From: Erythrobacter donghaensis
GTDB taxonomy: Bacteria; Pseudomonadota; Alphaproteobacteria; Sphingomonadales; Sphingomonadaceae
Direction of reading: 5' to 3'
Assembly: GCF_002155425.1 (NCBI RefSeq)
Contig: NZ_MUYG01000010.1
Location: 248,001 to 312,000, forward strand
Length of the DNA: 64,000 bases
The notes beneath the pieces were generated by a model, which was not told the origin of the DNA, searched no databases, and was given only the letters and a program-made list of their open reading frames with translations. Numbering within the stretch: position 1 is the stretch's first letter; the number at the start of each line of letters is the position of its first letter. A program made the position numbers and the translations under genes. This document shows, piece by piece, positions 23,170 through 38,566 of the stretch.

Positions 23170-25524
23170 GTGGTCCAACAACCGTCCTCCGTCCCTGCGC
23201 CGCTCCCGGCAGAACTGGCAATCGCCGATGTGCTTGGATTGTCACGCAATCCGGCGTTTGAGCCGACGCGTTTGCGAGGGGTCGAATTTTCGGAACTTGC
23301 GCGGGTCAGCCGCTACCGGATGTTTGCCAACGCGCTGGTGGCGGTGTTTGCCGTATCGGTTTTTGCCCCGCTGATCGGTTTGCTGATCGTGGTGCCCTGG
23401 GCCGCGGTGCTCGGCTTTGTGCTCTACATTACCCGCCAGACCGATCTGCTGCTGGTAGTGCCCGGGCAGAGGCCGGGTGGCGGCGCGCACGAGCGTTCGC
23501 AGCATCTCAACGCGGTGGCGGCGGCGGTGTGCTGGCTGGTGGCGCTGGTCCTCTTCCCGCGGCTCGCGGACGGGGCGCAAGAGACCACCATGCTGCTCGT
23601 AGTGCTCGTGCTGATGATGTGCTCCACCTTCGTCTTTTCGACCGCGCCGCTCAGCGTAATGATCTACAATGCGATCATGGGGCTCGGGGCCGCCGGCAAT
23701 TTGGCGGCGCAGGGCGAGTGGCATGGCGCCTGTGCAACGATCCTGTTCACCATCGCCAGTCTGGTCGCCATCATTCAGGTGCGCACGATTTTCCTCAAGG
23801 CGCGTCTCGCCGAGGCGATGGTGAGCGAGAAGGAAGAGGTGGTCTCGCTGCTGCTGCGCGAGTTCGAAGAGAACGAGGCAGACTGGCTGTGGGAAGTCGA
23901 TCCCGCCCGGCGGCTGCGCGCGGTGTCCCCCCGCTTTGCCTTCGCGCTCGGCCGCTCGCAGGAGGACACCGAAAGTAAGCCCCTGCTTGAAGTGATCGCC
24001 GGGCGCGGGTGGGAAACGGGGCAGTTTCCGCCGAGCCTCCACGATCTGGCCGAGCGGCTCAAGAACCGCGAGAATTTCTCGAACATGCTGGTGCAGGTCT
24101 CGATCCACGGTGCGGAACGCTGGTGGGAGCTTTCGGGCACGCCGATGCGCGACGAGCAGGGCCGCTTTACCGGCTTTCGCGGGGTGGGATCGGATGTCAC
24201 CGAGCAGCGCAATTCCTCGGAAAAAATCGCCTATCTCGCGCGCTTCGACACGCTCACGCAATTGCCCAATCGCCTGCAACTGACCGAGGCGCTGGGCGAG
24301 GCGCTGGCCTATGCCAGCCAGTGGCGCACGCGCTGCGCGTTGCTGATGGTCGATCTCGACCGGTTCAAGTCGGTGAACGATTCGCTTGGCCACATGACCG
24401 GCGACAAGCTGCTGGCGCAGGTGTCGGCACGGCTGCAATCGCTGATGGGCGAGAACGAGCTGTGCGGACGGCTGGGCGGCGACGAATTCGCGATCGTTGT
24501 GCGCGATGCCAGCGCGCCGGGCTGCATCGGCCAGCTCGCGCGGCGCGTGATCGAGCGCTTGTCGGAGCCCTATCTGGTCGATCACCACACGCTTTATGTC
24601 GGCGCCAGCGTCGGCTCGGCTGAAGGCCCGCGCGACGGCACCTCGGTGGAAGAGCTGATGCGCAATGCGGACCTTGCGCTCTACCGCGCCAAGGATGGCG
24701 GCGGGGGCGAGCATTGCCGCTTTGAGCCTGCGCTCCATGCTTCCGCTGAAGAACGCCGCCAGCTTGAAGTGGCGCTGCGCAAGGCGCTGGGGCGCAACGA
24801 AATGGTGCTGCACTATCAGCCCGTGGTCGATGCGCGGACCGAAAGCGTGGTCAGTTTCGAGGCGCTGGTGCGCTGGAACAGCGCCGAGCACGGCTTTGTC
24901 AGTCCCGGCAAGTTCATCCCGCTGGCCGAGGACACCCGCCTGATCGTGCCGATCGGCCAATGGGTGATGCGCCGGGCTTGCGAAGAGGCGCGCTATTGGC
25001 CCGATCACGTCAAGGTCAATGTCAACGTCTCGCCCGAACAGCTGCTGGAGCCCGGCTTCCATGGCGAGGTGCTGGATGCGCTCGCGGCGACCGGGTTGAA
25101 GCCCGAACGGCTCGAGATCGAAGTGACCGAGAGCATCTTCCTGCGCGACGCCAGCGTGGCGCGCAACGCGCTGGAGCAGGTGATGGCGCTGGGCTGTTCT
25201 GTGGCGCTCGACGATTTCGGTACCGGCTATTCCTCGCTCGGCTATCTGCGCAAGCTGCGCTTCTCGACCATCAAGGTCGATCGCACCTTCGTGCAGGGCG
25301 CAGCGCAGGGCAGCGCCGAGAGCCTTGCCATCATCAACGCGGTGGTGGCGATGGCAAAGAGCCTGAAGATGACGACCACTGCCGAAGGGGTGGAGACCGC
25401 CGAGGAATCGGAACTGATCCGGAACCTCGGCTGCGACAAGATTCAGGGCTTCTATTTCGGCCGACCGATGACCGATGAGGACGCGCGCCGCCTGTTCGTG
25501 CTGCCGAACGAACGCCGCGCCTGA
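23170..25524 (+). CDS. Membrane GGDEF-EAL protein with PAS domain (cyclic di-GMP turnover)
   Basis: A 784-residue inner-membrane protein. About five to six helices (roughly residues 45-210), then a PAS domain (about 228-345), a GGDEF diguanylate cyclase with an intact GGDEF motif near residue 435, and an EAL phosphodiesterase (FEALVRW near 563, EIEVTES, DDFGTGYSS near 680, TTAEGVET, DKIQGFYFGRP). Both active sites look complete, so it could make and break c-di-GMP. The RxxD inhibitory site normally five residues before GGDEF is not seen (NELCGR instead). Start is GTG 23170. The signal it senses is unknown; it may control motility or biofilm. Confidence 0.92.
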   Translation: MVQQPSSVPAPLPAELAIADVLGLSRNPAFEPTRLRGVEFSELARVSRYRMFANALVAVFAVSVFAPLIGLLIVVPWAAVLGFVLYITRQTDLLLVVPGQRPGGGAHERSQHLNAVAAAVCWLVALVLFPRLADGAQETTMLLVVLVLMMCSTFVFSTAPLSVMIYNAIMGLGAAGNLAAQGEWHGACATILFTIASLVAIIQVRTIFLKARLAEAMVSEKEEVVSLLLREFEENEADWLWEVDPARRLRAVSPRFAFALGRSQEDTESKPLLEVIAGRGWETGQFPPSLHDLAERLKNRENFSNMLVQVSIHGAERWWELSGTPMRDEQGRFTGFRGVGSDVTEQRNSSEKIAYLARFDTLTQLPNRLQLTEALGEALAYASQWRTRCALLMVDLDRFKSVNDSLGHMTGDKLLAQVSARLQSLMGENELCGRLGGDEFAIVVRDASAPGCIGQLARRVIERLSEPYLVDHHTLYVGASVGSAEGPRDGTSVEELMRNADLALYRAKDGGGGEHCRFEPALHASAEERRQLEVALRKALGRNEMVLHYQPVVDARTESVVSFEALVRWNSAEHGFVSPGKFIPLAEDTRLIVPIGQWVMRRACEEARYWPDHVKVNVNVSPEQLLEPGFHGEVLDALAATGLKPERLEIEVTESIFLRDASVARNALEQVMALGCSVALDDFGTGYSSLGYLRKLRFSTIKVDRTFVQGAAQGSAESLAIINAVVAMAKSLKMTTTAEGVETAEESELIRNLGCDKIQGFYFGRPMTDEDARRLFVLPNERRA

Positions 25525-26642: not shown

Positions 26643-26772
26643 CCGTCGCAAGAACGCCGCAGATGTGCCGCTTTCGCCCAGCCTTCAGGGCCTGCGTTCT
26701 CGCGCGAATCGAACAAAAATGTCACGGGCCGCGGCACCCACTCTCCATCCGCTCCAACCAGGGGGTTGTCCG

Positions 26773-29004
26773 ATGTCGACTCGTTTCTCCGCCATTCGTG
26801 CCATCTGGGCCGGTTCCACCGTGCTCGCCGCCGCCGCCTTCGGACTTGCCGCACCCGCCGCCGCGCAGGATGCCGAGGCCACCGCCGAAGCGCCCGAAGG
26901 TCAGCTTGCGACTATCATCGTCACCGCCAACCGGCGCGAGGAGAACCTTCAGGATGTCGCCGTATCGGCCGACATTCTGGATCAGGAGCGGGTCAGCGCG
27001 ATCTTCAGCGGCGCGGGCGACATCACCGCGCTGGCAGGCACCGCGCCCGGCCTCAATGTCGAAAGCTCGAACGGCCGCGTCGCCCCGCGCTTCTACATCC
27101 GCGGCCTCGGCAACACCGATTTCGACCTCGCCGCCTCGCAGCCCGTGTCGGTGCTGCTCGACGACGTGGTGCTCGAGAACGTCACCCTCAAGAGCTTCCC
27201 GATCTTCGACATCCAGCGCGTCGAAGTGCTGCGCGGGCCGCAGGGCACGCTGTTCGGGCGCAACACCCCGGCGGGCATCGTCAAGGTGGACTCGATCAAG
27301 CCGAGCCACGATACCTCGGTCGCCGCTTCGCTGTCCTTCGCCAGCCTCGACACGGTGTCGCTCACCGGCGCGGTCGGCGGGTCGATCGCCGAAGACGTGC
27401 TGGCCTTCCGCGTCGCCGCCCAGATCCAGACGCGCGGCGACTGGATCGACAACGGCTTCACCGGGCAGGACAACGTGCTCGGCGGCTACACCGATTTCGC
27501 CACCCGTGCGCAGCTGCTGTTCACGCCGAGCGAACGGGCGAGCATCCTTGCGTCGGTCAATTTCCGCGATCTGGCCGGTTCCTCGACCTTCTTCCGTGCC
27601 AACGTGCTGGGGCCGAGCGCCAACCAGCCGAACAACACCAACAAGCTCAACGAAAACTATGATCGCAACCGGGTGTTCTATGACGCCGGCGGCGGGAACG
27701 TGGCCGATTACCAGCAGTTCGGCGCGACGCTGACGGCGGCCTATGAATTCGACGGCGCGACCCTGACCTCGATCACCAGCCACTGGACCAGCGAAGGCTC
27801 CAGCCGCGGCGATGTCGATGGCGGCAACCTCGTGACGGGGCCGGGCTTCATCCCGTTCCCCTCGGACACGCAGGACTCGATCGACCTCAAGCAGACCACG
27901 CAGGAAGTGCGCGTTGCCTCGAACGGCAGCGGGCCCTTGAGCTGGCAGGTCGGCGGCTTCTATTTCGAGAGCGATTTCGACGTCACCACGGTCGGCTTCA
28001 GCTTCCCGCCGCCGGTCACTGTCAACCACACCAACGAAGCCTGGGCGCTGTTCGGTCAGGTCGGCTACCAGCTGACCGAGAGCCTGCGCGTCACCGGGGG
28101 CCTGCGCTACACCGAGGATGACAAGGCGTTCTTCGTCCGCTCGGGCGCGGCGCCGCAGCCGGTGAGCGTGGGTGACGAACAGTTCGATTGGGACATCAGC
28201 GTCTTCGCCGATGTCTCGGACGATGCCAGCGTCTATGCCAAGGTCGCCAATTCGTTCCGCGGGCCGACCATTCAGGGCCGCGACGTGGCGTTCTTCAGCC
28301 CGCCCTCGGTCGCCCAGTCGGAGAACATCACCTCCTACGAAGTCGGCTTCAAGAGCGAGCTGGCCGATCGCCGCGTGCGCCTGAACGGTGCAGCCTATTA
28401 CTACACTGTCGAAGACCCGCAGTTCACCGCCGTAGGCGGCGCGGGGAACCTCGTGCAGCTGATCAATGCCAACAAGGGTGAGGGCTGGGGCGTCGAATTC
28501 GACGGCGCGTTCCAGATCAGCCCCGAATTCCTGGTCACGCTGGGCGTGGCCTACAACAACACCGAGATCCAAGACGAGAACCTCGCGGTTGGTATCTGTG
28601 CGCAGTGCACCGTGACCGATCCGACCCGTCTGGTGGGCGGCACCCGCCGTGCCTTCATCGACGGCAACCCATTCCCCAATGCGCCGGAATGGAGCGGCGA
28701 TTTCACCGCTCGCTACGGCATCCCGGTGGGCAATTCGGGTGAATTCTTCATCTTCACCGACTGGGTCTACCTCGGTGAGACCAACTTCCTGCTCTACGAA
28801 AGCGCCGAGTTCAACGCCGGCAGCCGGATCGAGGGTGGCCTCAAGATCGGCTATGCGGGGGATGACGGCCAGTGGGAAGTCGCCGCCTTCGCGCGCAACA
28901 TCACCAATGAAGACAACGTGCTCGGCGTGGTCGACTTCAACAACAACACCGCTTTCGTCAACGATCCGCGCATCATCGGCGCGATGATCAGCGTCAAGTA
29001 CTGA
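26773..29004 (+). CDS. TonB-dependent outer-membrane receptor
   Basis: Energy-driven outer-membrane transporter of 743 residues, probably for iron-siderophore or another large ligand. Signal peptide about 1-30 (ending PAAAQ). A TonB-box-like ATIIVTA is followed by a plug with ALAGTAPGLNVE, RFYIRGLGN and RVEVLRGPQGTLFGRNTPAG, then a 22-strand barrel ending in an aromatic residue (MISVKY). The ligand is not predictable. ATG 26773 is chosen because it directly precedes the signal peptide; an in-frame ATG at 26665 adds unrelated residues. It lies between purS and purC, convergent with an M16 protease, and ends before a strong terminator. Confidence 0.92.
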   Translation: MSTRFSAIRAIWAGSTVLAAAAFGLAAPAAAQDAEATAEAPEGQLATIIVTANRREENLQDVAVSADILDQERVSAIFSGAGDITALAGTAPGLNVESSNGRVAPRFYIRGLGNTDFDLAASQPVSVLLDDVVLENVTLKSFPIFDIQRVEVLRGPQGTLFGRNTPAGIVKVDSIKPSHDTSVAASLSFASLDTVSLTGAVGGSIAEDVLAFRVAAQIQTRGDWIDNGFTGQDNVLGGYTDFATRAQLLFTPSERASILASVNFRDLAGSSTFFRANVLGPSANQPNNTNKLNENYDRNRVFYDAGGGNVADYQQFGATLTAAYEFDGATLTSITSHWTSEGSSRGDVDGGNLVTGPGFIPFPSDTQDSIDLKQTTQEVRVASNGSGPLSWQVGGFYFESDFDVTTVGFSFPPPVTVNHTNEAWALFGQVGYQLTESLRVTGGLRYTEDDKAFFVRSGAAPQPVSVGDEQFDWDISVFADVSDDASVYAKVANSFRGPTIQGRDVAFFSPPSVAQSENITSYEVGFKSELADRRVRLNGAAYYYTVEDPQFTAVGGAGNLVQLINANKGEGWGVEFDGAFQISPEFLVTLGVAYNNTEIQDENLAVGICAQCTVTDPTRLVGGTRRAFIDGNPFPNAPEWSGDFTARYGIPVGNSGEFFIFTDWVYLGETNFLLYESAEFNAGSRIEGGLKIGYAGDDGQWEVAAFARNITNEDNVLGVVDFNNNTAFVNDPRIIGAMISVKY

Positions 29005-33100: not shown

Positions 33101-33280
33101 TCAATCCTGCTCGGGCCAGCTGCCTTGCGCCACTTCGTCCGGGTCGGCGGGCGGGCCGGGGACAGCGTAGGAATCCGAGAACCAGCGCGCCAGATCGCGA
33201 TCGCGGCAGCGCTGCGAGCAGAAAGGGTGGTGATCGGGATGCCGCGGCTTGCGGCAGATCGGGCAGGGCTTGTTGGTCAT
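33101..33280 (-). CDS. yacG: DNA gyrase inhibitor YacG, zinc-binding
   Basis: Small zinc protein of 59 residues. Two CxxC-type pairs are visible, CPIC (residues 6-9) and CSQRC (21-25), with HPFCSQRCRDRDLARWFSDSY matching YacG. In E. coli YacG binds gyrase and inhibits its DNA binding. The acidic tail (DPDEVAQGSWPEQD) is usual. Its ATG overlaps the stop of the RNase E/G-like gene by 4 bases (ATGA), so it is translated from the same message. Confidence 0.93.
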   Translation of the reverse strand: MTNKPCPICRKPRHPDHHPFCSQRCRDRDLARWFSDSYAVPGPPADPDEVAQGSWPEQD

Positions 33281-34233
33281 GCCGCCACGATCTGGGCATT
33301 GGGCGCTTCGAGCGCAAGACCGAGATCGGTTTCTACCCGCACGGTGCGCCCCGTGCGGCGGGCGAGTTCATCGAGCCATTGCGCCTTCAGCTTGGCCTTA
33401 AGCGCGGGGTGGGCACGCAGCTCCAGCACCGGGCCGTGCCCTTCGGCCTGCTCGCCGATCCGCAGGGCGAGGCGCGCGCACATCCCGACGCGAGAGGTGG
33501 CGAATCGGTGCAGCAGCGAGGGGCCCTCCAGCCGCGCGACCAGTTGGACGAAGCCGAAGCCGTTCATCGCCGTGCGTTCATGCGGCCAGTCTGCGAGCGC
33601 CGCTCCCAGCGCGTCATCGACCGCGCGGCGATCATCCTTTGCCTGGAGCGTCGGAAAATCGATCCCGATATTGCCGCCAAGCCCGAACCACGCCAGCGCG
33701 CGGGCTATTGCGGGCACGGCCGCCAGCGCAACCTCGCGCGGGGTGCCGACACCGTCTATGTCGATCACGGTCATGGCGGGGGTCACGCTGACAAGAATCT
33801 CGCCGCCGGAAATGTCGAGGCTGCCCGCCGATGCGGCGTGCCAGACTTCGTCCCACAGGCCAGCGGGAAAGCGGCGGACGATGCGGCCTTCGGGCCAGCC
33901 CGAAGCGGGCGAGGGGGCATCGGCCCCCGCCACCCGCGCCTGCGCCCGCTTGAAACGTCCGCGCTCGGCAAGGCCCGCGCGGGTGATGACGAGATCGAGG
34001 TTCTGGCCTTCCGTGGCGCTCGGCGGGAGGTGATCGACCAGCGCCTCGCGCCCGTCATCCAGCAGCGCCACACCGCGCCGCGTGCCCTTGAGCTTGGCGG
34101 TGAGCCGGCCGGTCACCCGCGCGCCTGCGGTCAACTCTCCCGGCCACATCATCTTCGCGGCCAGCACGCGCTCGCCCTCGACCAGCAGGGCGCGGGTTTC
34201 CCCGATCCCTTCCTCGATCAGCCACTCAGCCAA
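33277..34233 (-). CDS. RNase E/G-like protein, short form
   Basis: A 318-residue protein resembling the catalytic core of RNase E/G but lacking the long scaffold and shortened in the S1-like region. Visible: RGVALLDDGREALVDHLPP (S1-like strand and loop) and ISGGEILVSVTPAMTVIDIDGVG (the metal-binding Asp region of the DNase I-like domain), followed by NIGIDFPTL. Residues near HERTAMNGFGFVQLVA resemble the end of that domain. Short forms of this type accompany maf and yacG in alphaproteobacteria; their RNA target is unknown. It overlaps maf by 8 bases and yacG by 4. Confidence 0.82.
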   Translation of the reverse strand: MAEWLIEEGIGETRALLVEGERVLAAKMMWPGELTAGARVTGRLTAKLKGTRRGVALLDDGREALVDHLPPSATEGQNLDLVITRAGLAERGRFKRAQARVAGADAPSPASGWPEGRIVRRFPAGLWDEVWHAASAGSLDISGGEILVSVTPAMTVIDIDGVGTPREVALAAVPAIARALAWFGLGGNIGIDFPTLQAKDDRRAVDDALGAALADWPHERTAMNGFGFVQLVARLEGPSLLHRFATSRVGMCARLALRIGEQAEGHGPVLELRAHPALKAKLKAQWLDELARRTGRTVRVETDLGLALEAPNAQIVAA

Positions 34234-34813: not shown

Positions 34814-35059
34814 TTATTGCGGGCCGGGGCCGCCGCGACCCGGCATGAAGCGGTAGGTGATGCGCGCCTTGGTGAGATCATAGGGCGTGAGTTCGCACAG
34901 CACTTCGTCGCCCACCAGCACGCGGATGCGGTTCTTGCGCATCTTGCCCGCCGTGTGGCCGAGAACCTCATGGCCGTTTTCAAGCTCCACCCGGAACATC
35001 GCATTGGGCAGCAACTCAACCACGCGCCCGCGCATTTCGAGGAGTTCTTCCTTGGCCAT
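34814..35059 (-). CDS. infA: Translation initiation factor IF-1
   Basis: Essential S1-fold factor that binds the ribosomal A site during initiation. The 81-residue protein has the standard [22 protein letters not shown] start and [24 protein letters not shown]. It is about nine residues longer than the common 72, the extra being a Gly/Pro tail (GRGGPGPQ). AAGGAAT precedes the ATG. It heads the infA-maf-RNase E/G-like-yacG-tRNA-Phe run on the minus strand and is divergent from the unusual receptor gene. Confidence 0.97.
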
Positions 35060-35314: not shown

Positions 35315-38300
35315 ATGAACCTCTCCCCGCTCTCCCGCGCTGCCTTGCGCGCCGGCACCTGTGCTCTCGCCCTGTCGCTGTTCCCCGCGCCCGCAATTTC
35401 GGCGCCCGCGCCCGCCGCCGCGGCAGCGCAGCCGCAGCCCGAGCTTGCCAACCAGCCCAAGGAGGAAGAGCTCGACAGCGCCAGCGATGTGGTGCCGGCG
35501 GCGGACAAGGAAATCATCGTGCGCTCCGGGCGGCTGCGCGGGCAGCTGTTCGTCGAACAGGCCCCGCTGCTGCAACTCGATGAAGAAGCAATCGCAGCCG
35601 AGGGCGTAACCTCGATCACCGATCTGATCGCCCAAATCAGCGCGCGCACCGGCTCTGCGCGGGGGCGCGGAGGCGGCGGGCAGCCGGTGATCCTCGTCAA
35701 CGGCATCCGCATCGGGTCATTCCGCGAATTCGCCAATTATCCCCCTGAGGCGCTCGCGCGGGTCGAGGTGTTTCCCGAGGAAGTCGCCCAGCGCTTCGGC
35801 TTTCCGCCCGATCGCCGCGTGATCAACCTGATCCTCAAGGACAATTATTCGAACCGGCAGCTCGATTTCGAGCTCGAGGCACCCTCGCGCGGGGGTTATG
35901 TTCGCAATGAACAACGGGTCGGAACGCTCAGGATCGCCGATGGCGGCCGGATCAACGCCAGCGTGCAGCTCGAAGACACGACGCTGCTGACCGAGGCGGA
36001 ACGCAATATCATCCAGACCGAAGGCTCGCAGTCCGACGTTGCCGGCGATCCCGATCAGGCCGAATACCGTAGCCTGCTGGCCGACACCTTCGGGCTCGAT
36101 GCCAATGTGTCGTGGGCCAAGGCGATCATCGACAGCGGCACCTCGCTCAGCGCCAACCTCAACTACGCCCGCAATGAGAGCCGCAGTCTCGACGGGCTCA
36201 ACACGGTCGCGCTGACGGGGCCGGATGGCGACACGGCGTTTCGCACCTTCGGGGCGGACACCCCGCTATCCCGGCGCACGTCGAGCGACACGGTGTCGGC
36301 TGCCGGTTCGATCAACCAGCCGATCAATGCCTTCCGGCTTACCAGCACCTTCGACGGCGCATACAGCGAATCTGCAACCGAGATCGACCGGCGCCTGCGG
36401 TCCGACCAGTTGCAGGTGTTCCGCGATGCCGCGGCGGCGGGCACGCTGGCGATCACCGGCTCCTTGCCGTCCGACACCGACAACGGGTTCGATCTGGCGC
36501 GCAGCAAGATCATCAGCACCGAAACGCAGACCACGCTGGAGGGGCCGCTTGCACTTCTGCCTGCGGGCGAAGTTCTGGCGACCTTCGATCTCGGCTTCGA
36601 CTGGAAGCGGATCGAGAGCAACGACACGCGGTCGCTGACGGGATCGGAACTGACCCGCCGGCGCATTTCCACCGGCGCCAATGTGGTGGTGCCGCTCACC
36701 AGCACCCGCGACGAATTCCTCGATGCGCTTGGCGACTTCACGCTGAACCTTCAGGCCGGGCTCGAGAATCTCAGCGATTTCGGAACGCTGGGGGACTGGA
36801 ACGCGGGGATCACGTGGCGGCCGACCGACGGGCTCGATCTGTCGGCGACCTATATCTGGCGCGAATCGGCTCCCTCGATCTCTGCGCTCGGCAACCCGCA
36901 GATCGACAATCTCAACGTGCCGGTGTTCGATTTCGTACGCGGGGAGACGGTGCTTGCGACCGTACGCACCGGCGGCAATCCCGATCTTCCGGCAGAGACC
37001 CAGCGCGACTGGAAATTCTCGGCAAACTGGGAATTGCCGTTCTGGGAGAATTCGCGCCTGGCGGTCGACTACATTCGCAACCGGTCGGACAATGTCGTGA
37101 GCGGCTTTCCGCAGATCACCTCCGAGATCGAAGCGGCCTTCCCGGGCCGTGTGACGCGCGCGGCGCCTGACAATCCCGGCGAGATCGGACGTCTGATCGC
37201 GGTCGACCGGCGCTCGGTCAGCTTCGCCCAGACGAAGGCGGACCGGCTCCAGTTCACGTTATCGACCAGTGGCAGCATCGGCGCGCCTGCCGAGGGCGAG
37301 GGTGGCCTTGGCGGCGGCGGTCGCGGACGCTTTGGTGGCGGTGGTGGTGGCGGCGCTCCTGCGGCGGCGGCCCCTGCGGCCCAGCCTGCCCCGCCGACCA
37401 CCGGCCCGGCGGCGACCCCGCCTGCGGGCGGACGGCCCGGCGGCGGCATGTTCGGCGGCGGCGCGGCCCCGACGCCCGAACAGCGCGAGCAGTTCATGGC
37501 CTTTCGCACCCGCCTGTGCGCCGATGACGGGCAGGCCTTCCTAGAAAGGCTGGTCGCCGCGATCGACAGCGGTGCGGACATCTCCGCCGAGTTCCCCGGC
37601 ATCGACACAGCCCGCCTCGCCCCGATGCTGGCGCGCGTACGGGCGGCGGACGGCACGGTCGACACCGACCGGCTGGCGCAGTTCCGCACCCGGATCTGCA
37701 GCATGGACCCGGCGATGATGGGTGCTGGGCGCGGGCCGGGTAGTGGCGGTCAGGGCGGGGCTCCCGCCGAGATTCCGCCGCAGCGCGCCGCCTTCCGCGA
37801 ACGTGCCTGCGGCCCCGAGGGCGCCACAGCCATCGCCGAGCTGATCGCCAAGATCGAGCGCGGCGAAGATGTCTCGGCCGAATTGCCCGGCGTCGACCCC
37901 GCCTTCATCAAGATGGCGATCGACCGCTCGCGCCGTCCTGACGGCACTATCCCGCCCGAGGCGCTGGCACAGTTCCAGCAGCGCTTCTGCGCGGCGGCCC
38001 CGGCAGGGCAGGGCGCGGGCGGGCCTCCGGCAGCAGGCGGCGGCGCGCCGGCGGGCGGCCCGGCCTTCAATCCGCTGGCCGGTCGGCAGTTTCAGGGCTG
38101 GCGCTACTTCGCCAACCTGACCCACACGATCGAGCTCGCCAACGAGGTCCTGATCGCCCCCGGCATCGCCCCACTCGACCAGCTTGACGGTCAGGCGACC
38201 GGCGCCTTCGGCCAGCCGCGGCATTCCAGCCGGCTCGAAGCGGGCCTGTTCGGCAAGGGGATCGGCTTCCGCCTGTCGGGTATCTACACGGGCGAGACCA

Positions 38301-38566
38301 GGCTCGACGGCGCGGTCGGCACCAGCGATCTGTTCTTCGACGACATCGTCACGTTCAACCTGCGCATCTTTGCCAATATGGGTGAGGTGACGGGCAAGAA
38401 CGAAGGGCTGCTCAAGGATTTCCGCGTCAGCCTTATCGCCGACAACGTCTTCGACGCGCAGCGCCGGGTCCGCGATTCGGCGGGCGAGACGCCGATCAAT
38501 TACCAGCCCTTCGTGATCGACCCGCTGGGGCTCTATCTCGGGATTGACTTGCGGAAGCTCTTTTGA
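35315..38566 (+). CDS. TonB-receptor-like outer-membrane protein with a Cys-bracketed repeat insertion
   Basis: A 1083-residue outer-membrane protein. Signal peptide about 1-30. An EIIVR TonB-box-like start, a plug (about 80-190) with QPVILVNGIRIGS and ALARVEVFPEE, then barrel strands. From about residue 655 to 920 the barrel is interrupted by an insertion: a Gly/Ala/Pro-rich stretch, then two tandem repeats with a Cys at each end (735 to 795 and 832 to 892, both spacings exactly 60). Shared core motifs are SAEFPGID/SAELPGVD and ADGTV/PDGTI with LAQF before the closing Cys. The barrel resumes at GRQFQGWRYFANL and ends in Phe. The ligand is unknown. AAAGGGA precedes ATG 35315. Confidence 0.85.
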   Translation: MNLSPLSRAALRAGTCALALSLFPAPAISAPAPAAAAAQPQPELANQPKEEELDSASDVVPAADKEIIVRSGRLRGQLFVEQAPLLQLDEEAIAAEGVTSITDLIAQISARTGSARGRGGGGQPVILVNGIRIGSFREFANYPPEALARVEVFPEEVAQRFGFPPDRRVINLILKDNYSNRQLDFELEAPSRGGYVRNEQRVGTLRIADGGRINASVQLEDTTLLTEAERNIIQTEGSQSDVAGDPDQAEYRSLLADTFGLDANVSWAKAIIDSGTSLSANLNYARNESRSLDGLNTVALTGPDGDTAFRTFGADTPLSRRTSSDTVSAAGSINQPINAFRLTSTFDGAYSESATEIDRRLRSDQLQVFRDAAAAGTLAITGSLPSDTDNGFDLARSKIISTETQTTLEGPLALLPAGEVLATFDLGFDWKRIESNDTRSLTGSELTRRRISTGANVVVPLTSTRDEFLDALGDFTLNLQAGLENLSDFGTLGDWNAGITWRPTDGLDLSATYIWRESAPSISALGNPQIDNLNVPVFDFVRGETVLATVRTGGNPDLPAETQRDWKFSANWELPFWENSRLAVDYIRNRSDNVVSGFPQITSEIEAAFPGRVTRAAPDNPGEIGRLIAVDRRSVSFAQTKADRLQFTLSTSGSIGAPAEGEGGLGGGGRGRFGGGGGGGAPAAAAPAAQPAPPTTGPAATPPAGGRPGGGMFGGGAAPTPEQREQFMAFRTRLCADDGQAFLERLVAAIDSGADISAEFPGIDTARLAPMLARVRAADGTVDTDRLAQFRTRICSMDPAMMGAGRGPGSGGQGGAPAEIPPQRAAFRERACGPEGATAIAELIAKIERGEDVSAELPGVDPAFIKMAIDRSRRPDGTIPPEALAQFQQRFCAAAPAGQGAGGPPAAGGGAPAGGPAFNPLAGRQFQGWRYFANLTHTIELANEVLIAPGIAPLDQLDGQATGAFGQPRHSSRLEAGLFGKGIGFRLSGIYTGETRLDGAVGTSDLFFDDIVTFNLRIFANMGEVTGKNEGLLKDFRVSLIADNVFDAQRRVRDSAGETPINYQPFVIDPLGLYLGIDLRKLF

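What the first reader, a model, noticed from the sequence alone, without database searches (positions are those of the whole stretch)
35315..38566. TonB-type receptor with a tandem Cys-bracketed insertion in its barrel
About 265 residues (655-920) interrupt the C-terminal barrel. They include a Gly/Ala/Pro-rich region and two tandem repeats, each with a Cys pair exactly 60 residues apart (735/795 and 832/892) and shared motifs SAEFPGID / SAELPGVD and DGTV / DGTI. Such an insertion would sit in one very long loop, possibly at the cell surface, and the repeats could be a ligand-binding or adhesion module.
Basis: partly seen in the sequence, partly recalled or inferred. Interest (0 to 1): 0.62.

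Follow-up and report, generated by a model that had tools for sequence, protein, structure and literature searches.

The report
Cysteine-clamped periplasmic insert in receptor
A nutrient-uptake pore in the outer membrane of an Erythrobacter-like bacterium carries two small extra modules, each probably locked by a disulfide, that seem to hang into the space below the membrane rather than on the cell surface; what they bind is unknown.

Summary
The 1083-residue protein at 35315-38566 is a TonB-dependent receptor (plug plus 22-strand barrel in an AlphaFold2 model; PirA, Cir and BtuB head the structural matches). Residues 656-928 interrupt the barrel and hold two tandem, 42% identical helical repeats (pLDDT blocks 76-91) joined by disordered Gly/Ala/Pro linkers. 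The surface reading does not hold: 16 strands precede and 6 follow, so the insert replaces a periplasmic turn (T8). In 117 distinct relatives the plug and barrel have no cysteine; the insert has 0, 2 or 4 (14, 32, 71), never an odd number, in pairs 37-64 apart, as expected for one disulfide per repeat. It is not a recent expansion: dN/dS is 0.18 (barrel 0.20), the gene sits at a conserved infA-maf locus, and the duplication looks older than the double carriers, with later changes of copy number. In samples of 397 family, 296 order and 385 class genomes the repeat was found convincingly only in this receptor and this family; Pfam and PDB searches gave no credible match. Most likely it is a tethered periplasmic docking module, for a TonB protein or another envelope partner. 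Fold and side are predicted; the partner is inferred. A new variant of a known kind.

The parts
35315..38566 (+). TonB-dependent receptor, 1083 aa
35327..35380 (+). hydrophobic N-terminal helix (residues 5-22), probable signal peptide
   Evidence: sequence and model; no signal-peptide program was available
35507..35527 (+). TonB box candidate KEIIVRS (residues 65-71)
   Evidence: profile alignment to BtuB DTLVVTA
35540..35836 (+). plug domain (residues 76-174)
   Evidence: Pfam Plug E 0.0016, below cut-off; hhalign to BtuB E 6.4e-5; model
35846..37279 (+). barrel strands 1-16 (residues 178-655)
   Evidence: model, BtuB anchor at residues 471-567
37280..37474 (+). disordered Gly/Ala/Pro-rich tether (residues 656-720)
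   Evidence: pLDDT under 50 over most of it
37475..37723 (+). helical repeat 1 (residues 721-803), Cys735 and Cys795
37724..37774 (+). linker between the repeats (residues 804-820)
   Evidence: low pLDDT
37775..38002 (+). helical repeat 2 (residues 821-896), Cys832 and Cys892
38003..38098 (+). disordered return tether (residues 897-928)
   Evidence: low pLDDT
38099..38563 (+). barrel strands 17-22 and C-terminal Phe (residues 929-1083)
   Evidence: model; F1083 invariant in A1
34814..35059 (-). infA (translation initiation factor IF-1), divergent neighbour that marks the conserved locus; not part of the system
   Evidence: the name is recalled from the sequence, no family search was run on it

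Best explanation
It is an ordinary-fold TonB-dependent receptor whose eighth periplasmic turn (between barrel strands 16 and 17) has been expanded into a tethered periplasmic module: a long flexible Gly/Ala/Pro arm, one or two small helical domains each closed by one disulfide, and a shorter return arm. Supported here by computation: the fold, the side of the membrane (by strand order in the model), the pairing of the cysteines across 117 relatives, purifying selection, and restriction to this receptor in the genomes sampled. Inferred: DsbA-type enzymes oxidise each Cys pair in the periplasm; the domains then act as a docking surface next to the mouth of the barrel, capturing a periplasmic partner. 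My first choice of partner is the C-terminal domain of one of the cell's several TonB proteins, which the module could hold near the TonB box or select among paralogues; copy number one or two would tune avidity. Confidence: periplasmic location about 0.88, one disulfide per repeat about 0.85, partner docking about 0.5, TonB as that partner about 0.25.
For: Fold: 22 strands, Foldseek best E 2.7e-20 and 194 chains at E 0.001 or better; VIA Z 24.3 PirA, 22.7 Cir, 22.1 BtuB. Side: 16 strands before, 6 after; gaps on the insert's side 2,4,2,2,13,2,6,[273],2,14 against 6,29,5,33,6,3,42,38,23,13,30 on the other, one-sided Mann-Whitney p 0.003 without the insert. A local profile match to BtuB fixes strands 11-13 and the outer loop after them, three strands ahead of the insert (residues 471-567); which BtuB turn is periplasmic is recalled. 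Cysteines: 117 of 117 distinct relatives have none in the plug and barrel parts; insert counts 0, 2 or 4, never odd. Folded: pLDDT blocks 76-91 in the full model, 84.4 alone. Selected: 13 pairs, dN/dS 0.175 repeats, 0.198 barrel. Private: all 60 loci fetched for the repeat (L074-L133) carry a frame of this receptor (two of them broken by contig ends or gaps). The genome has 9 TonB_C and 4 DSBA matches over cut-off. HasR periplasmic loops without the TonB box bind HasB by calorimetry (passages, PMC11633176); a figure legend of the FhuA-TonB contact labels turns T8 and T9 for reference (PMC11658791, section 9).
Against: No partner is identified by any search. In HasR the loops named as touching HasB are L1, L4 and L10, not the eighth, so T8 is not a proven TonB site. 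Receptors with an empty T8 (14 of 117) and with one module (32 of 117) lie in the same clades as others, so the module is dispensable for the core function. The side of the membrane rests on strand order in a predicted model whose coordinates I could not inspect; some strands are my merging of neighbouring DSSP pieces. The TonB box was matched by alignment only. Identity to solved receptors in the structural alignments is 8-14%. dN/dS of the linkers (0.203) is close to that of the repeats.
Confidence: 0.5

Rival explanations
1. The insert is an extracellular loop domain for ligand capture or adhesion.
For: Long loops of such receptors are usually extracellular (PMC11633176 says so for HasR, passages); the repeats are folded and conserved.
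Against: Strand parity from both ends and the loop-length pattern put it on the periplasmic side; the BtuB anchor fits this register.
Confidence: 0.07
2. The module is a mechanical or wall-anchoring tether: it binds peptidoglycan or an OmpA/Pal-like protein and fixes or spaces the receptor in the envelope.
For: Flexible arms on both sides (median 56 residues before the first Cys, 35 after the last); Arg-bearing helix ends F-R-x-R-x-C; periplasmic side.
Against: No wall-binding family matched in Pfam. Losses among relatives.
Confidence: 0.2
3. The module catches the imported substrate on the periplasmic side, or holds a cofactor or metal, as a built-in substitute for a binding protein.
For: It hangs from the periplasmic rim of the barrel; acidic DG motifs recur in the repeats.
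Against: No known ligand; no fold match to a binding protein; the DG motif lacks the first and twelfth acidic positions of an EF-hand loop and no EF-hand family matched.
Confidence: 0.15
4. The insert is a neutral, low-complexity expansion that happens to be tolerated in a periplasmic turn.
For: The Gly/Ala/Pro linkers vary in length and the turn is 25-68 residues long even without repeats (14 of 117); copy number changes often.
Against: Repeats have dN/dS 0.175, no higher than the barrel, spacing that is steady within clades, and never an odd cysteine number.
Confidence: 0.08

Closest known systems
TonB-dependent transporters (BtuB, Cir, PirA, FepA)
   Same: Plug plus 22-strand barrel, TonB-box candidate aligned to BtuB, terminal Phe
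   Different: Known members have a short turn at this place (recalled); here 273 residues with folded repeats
TonB-dependent transducers with an N-terminal signalling domain (FecA, FoxA, HasR)
   Same: An extra periplasmic domain on a TonB-dependent receptor that meets periplasmic partners (PMC11658791 and PMC11633176, passages)
   Different: There the domain lies before the TonB box; here it is inside the barrel, and no signalling-domain family matched
EF-hand proteins such as calmodulin
   Same: A helix-loop-helix with a D-G-x-I motif; weak calmodulin-like rows (E 0.45; Z 2.0-2.3)
   Different: No family match, loop positions 1 and 12 not acidic, Cys pair instead
PapC-type ushers (domain inserted within a barrel)
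   Same: A separate domain inserted between barrel strands (recalled; PMC4356140 seen in a search listing only)
   Different: There the insert plugs the pore; here a TonB-type N-terminal plug is present and the insert is outside the barrel

Membership tests
TonB-dependent receptor | 22-strand C-terminal barrel of the TBDR fold | tested here: met
TonB-dependent receptor | N-terminal plug domain | tested here: met
   Model and hhalign to the BtuB plug E 6.4e-5, probability 64; Pfam Plug E 0.0016 but 19.3 bits against a cut-off of 23.9
TonB-dependent receptor | TonB box before the plug | tested here: inconclusive
   KEIIVRS aligns with BtuB DTLVVTA; function not testable here
TonB-dependent receptor | energy-dependent uptake of a substrate with TonB | not testable with these tools
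   substrate unknown; 9 TonB_C matches in the genome
TonB-dependent transducer (cell-surface signalling) | N-terminal signalling (secretin/TonB short N-terminal) domain | tested here: not met
   Pfam-A scan at E 1 gives Plug only; only 64 residues, signal peptide included, precede the TonB-box candidate
EF-hand | recognisable EF-hand profile and DxDxDG loop with Glu at position 12 | tested here: not met
   No EF-hand family in Pfam at E 10 for the two window repeats or at E 1 for 11 short units; loop read from sequence
EF-hand | EF-hand fold | tested here: inconclusive
   calmodulin rows at Z 2.0-2.3 only
Twin CX9C / CHCH helical hairpins (feature recalled) | two CX9C motifs | tested here: not met
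   one pair per repeat, 37-64 apart

The most novel reading that the evidence does not exclude
A TonB-dependent receptor with a control arm built into its own barrel: disulfide-locked modules hung from periplasmic turn T8 select which of several TonB paralogues may energise the pore, or report the oxidation state of the periplasm, with sensitivity set by the number of modules. This would be a second architectural solution, besides N-terminal signalling domains, for coupling an outer-membrane pore to the periplasm.
Probability: 0.15. Interest if true: 0.75.

Novelty: new variant of a known kind. Interest (0 to 1): 0.5.

Why it matters
TonB-dependent receptors are described as plug, barrel and, at times, an N-terminal signalling domain; periplasmic turns are taken as short connectors. 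Here a widespread receptor of one bacterial family has a conserved, cysteine-paired domain in such a turn, in zero, one or two copies. Natural zero- and one-copy forms in relatives make the function of the module directly testable, and bear on the open question of how TonB and other periplasmic proteins recognise a given receptor.

Tried and rejected
Surface loop or adhesin: rejected on strand parity. Recent low-complexity expansion: rejected on selection, synteny and phylogeny. EF-hand: no support. Known fold of the repeat: Foldseek best E 1.3 (gasdermin-B), 0 of 39 matches at E 0.001 or better; VIA best Z 3.6 (71 aligned, rmsd 4.2), only among the 150 chains Foldseek ranked highest, 148 aligned: no known relative found, which does not show that the fold is new. 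The viral structure library was not searched. Sequence hits in the PDB for the tandem insert (best E 0.0047, a phosphatase) and for profiles A2 and A3 (best E 0.41 and 0.03) were judged chance. A regulatory RNA near the gene was looked for because of the BtuB match: Rfam at gathering thresholds gave only one tRNA in the window. The promoter/terminator scan was uninformative. Global hhalign of the last barrel strands to BtuB misaligned beyond the anchor (-glob) and was not used; hhalign of the whole profile A1 to BtuB aligned only the N-terminal part. Papers: searches list no paper that is, by title and abstract start, about this insert; I read only these listings, apart from PMC11658791 (passages and section 9 whole) and PMC11633176 (passages). 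The library holds open-licence papers only and the lists are capped, so absence from print is not shown. A first dN/dS run held duplicated sequences and was redone on distinct ones.

Full report
WHAT IS THERE. The reading frame 35315-38566 (+) gives 1083 residues. Its only cysteines are 16, 735, 795, 832 and 892; the two stretches around the later pairs are 42% identical over 86 positions, Smith-Waterman 170 against at most 70 in 2000 shuffles. Pfam gives only a sub-threshold Plug match (E 0.0016, 19.3 bits, cut-off 23.9), NCBIfam nothing credible (best E 0.053).

THE RECEPTOR. AlphaFold2 on the window protein plus 39 relatives (A1) gave mean pLDDT 77.7, pTM 0.66. The 50 Foldseek rows shown are all TonB-dependent or SusC/RagA/TbpA-type receptors (best E 2.7e-20; 194 chains at E 0.001 or better); VIA-align gives PirA Z 24.3 (467 aligned, rmsd 3.5), Cir 22.7 and BtuB 22.1 at 8-14% identity. 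A profile of A1 finds BtuB among PDB sequences at E 4.4e-5, and hhalign aligns the N-terminus, including the TonB-box candidate KEIIVRS with BtuB DTLVVTA, and the plug to BtuB (E 6.4e-5, probability 64; BtuB from E. coli K-12).

WHICH SIDE. The tool gives secondary structure, not coordinates, so the side is read from strand order. I read 22 barrel strands, merging neighbouring DSSP pieces (252-271, 276-301, 307-337, 1006-1021) and leaving short pieces and the hairpin at 530-552 in outer loops; counting that hairpin as two strands would not change the parity. Sixteen strands precede the insert (last 635-655) and six follow (first 929-946). As the plug enters from the periplasm and the chain ends there, an even count on either side means a periplasmic turn: T8, between strands 16 and 17. 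Gaps on that side are 2, 4, 2, 2, 13, 2, 6, 2, 14 without the insert; on the other side 6, 29, 5, 33, 6, 3, 42, 38, 23, 13, 30 (one-sided Mann-Whitney p 0.003). This fits the known pattern of long outer and shorter periplasmic loops (stated for HasR in PMC11633176, passages). The local BtuB match covers window residues 471-567, strands 11-13 up to the start of strand 14, three strands ahead of the insert; that BtuB's turn in this stretch is periplasmic is recalled.

THE REPEATS. In the full model the repeats have block pLDDT of 76-91 and the linkers mostly below 50. One repeat alone, with 33 other units, gave pLDDT 84.4, pTM 0.71 and four main helices plus a short last one, with the Cys pair at the ends of the first and fourth. 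Both Cys end a similar helix, F-R-x-R-x-C (69 units of the 60-spaced type): Arg at -4 in 69 of 69 and 49 of 69, Arg at -2 in 60 of 69 and 67 of 69. No Pfam family matches credibly; no fold match was found.

ACROSS RELATIVES. One genome scan gave 42 named loci, by title Sphingomonadales-type or unplaced Pseudomonadota. From 172 loci then held, 7 were set aside (six of the window's own gene, and BtuB), 153 of the other 165 had both barrel parts in one frame, and 117 were distinct (12 dropped for not meeting the frame test, 36 as duplicates). Cysteines in the plug and barrel parts: none in 117 of 117. In the insert: 0 in 14, 2 in 32, 4 in 71, odd in none. Spacing within a pair: 60 (79 pairs), 41 (39), 37 (26), 59 (11), 40 (10), 63 (5), and 58, 61, 50, 64 once each; between pairs 19 to 55. 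The empty turn is 25-68 residues. The short 41/37 forms align as the long form without a middle stretch. Extra cysteines near the N-terminus of some relatives lie ahead of the parts counted.

DISTRIBUTION. All counts are of samples, in the family codes of the tool. In 397 genomes of the family the plug and barrel part matches in 341 at E 1e-30 (82 of 96 genera; likely paralogues among the weaker matches were not removed), the long repeat profile in 126 at E 0.01 (37 of 96 genera; 114 at E 1e-4 or better by my count of the table). In the order, the short profile matches 85 of 296 genomes at E 0.01; matches in other frames, and the single one outside the family (E 0.0071), are weak (E 8.6e-5 to 0.0097) and look like chance, though I did not examine each. 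In the class, 6 of 385 genomes at E 0.001: four of the same family and two weak ones (5.9e-5 with a stop in frame, 5.8e-4). All 60 loci fetched for the repeat (L074-L133) carry a frame matching this receptor; L076 is the window's own gene, L079 covers only residues 720-1083 at a contig start, and in L089 the frame matched is a neighbouring piece of a gapped contig. In the window's own genome no second copy was seen at E 10 with the two-repeat stretch.

HISTORY. A quick tree of 118 receptors on the plug and barrel part, insert left out, needs 22 changes for the six architectures (shuffled mean 62.9), so architecture is inherited but changes often. Within the 28 doubles with 60-spaced repeats, first repeats resemble each other (mean identity 0.68) and second repeats each other (0.65) more than the two of one protein (0.43, at most 0.51; the lowest within-class values, 0.37 and 0.36, overlap this), which suggests a duplication older than these species; 12 of 13 singles are nearer the first type, some only slightly, and L071 is nearer the second. 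infA lies upstream in the opposite direction in 39 of 42 named loci (in L025 about 2.7 kb away); the other three are cut by the contig end. On 13 pairs of distinct sequences (Nei-Gojobori) dN/dS is 0.175 for repeats, 0.198 for the barrel, 0.203 for linkers and 0.31 for the N-terminus; dS differs between regions (0.55 to 0.92), some pairs are distant and one (L013/L017) joins a long and a short form, so these ratios are rough, and by this measure the linkers are not much freer than the rest, although their length varies.

MECHANISM. Supported by computation: receptor fold, periplasmic side, paired cysteines, selection, restriction to this receptor in the samples. Inferred: oxidation by DsbA-type proteins (four DSBA matches over cut-off in the genome) and docking of a periplasmic partner. 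I favour a TonB-type partner: the genome has nine TonB_C matches over cut-off, HasR without its TonB box still binds HasB through its periplasmic loops by calorimetry, more than 30 times more weakly than whole HasR (PMC11633176, passages), and a figure of the FhuA-TonB contact labels turns T8 and T9 for reference (legend, PMC11658791, section 9 read). Against it, the HasR loops named are L1, L4 and L10, and nothing here identifies a partner. Wall anchoring and substrate catching stay open.

VERDICT. It is a new variant of a known kind, of moderate interest because natural zero-, one- and two-copy forms allow a direct test.

Noticed in passing
26665-29004: A second TonB-dependent receptor frame, best NCBIfam match TonB-siderophor (E 1.3e-31, below its cut-off).
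   Followed up: no
whole genome G000: Nine TonB_C matches, all over the Pfam cut-off, in a 3.4 Mb genome; a large set in my judgement, with no comparison run.
   Followed up: no
37280-38098 in relatives without the repeats (14 of 117): The turn is still 25-68 residues long, Gly-rich in those printed, long for a periplasmic turn, so the site seems expanded apart from the repeats.
   Followed up: partly
L018, L022, L061, L073 and others, N-terminal region: Extra cysteines near the N-terminus occur in some relatives, in or near the probable signal peptide.
   Followed up: no
23170-25524: GGDEF/EAL-type protein by its NCBIfam matches.
   Followed up: no
33277-34233: Short Rne/Rng-related protein between maf and a tRNA-Phe, matching only part of the RNase E/G model (TIGR00757 E 2.3e-6, below cut-off).
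   Followed up: no
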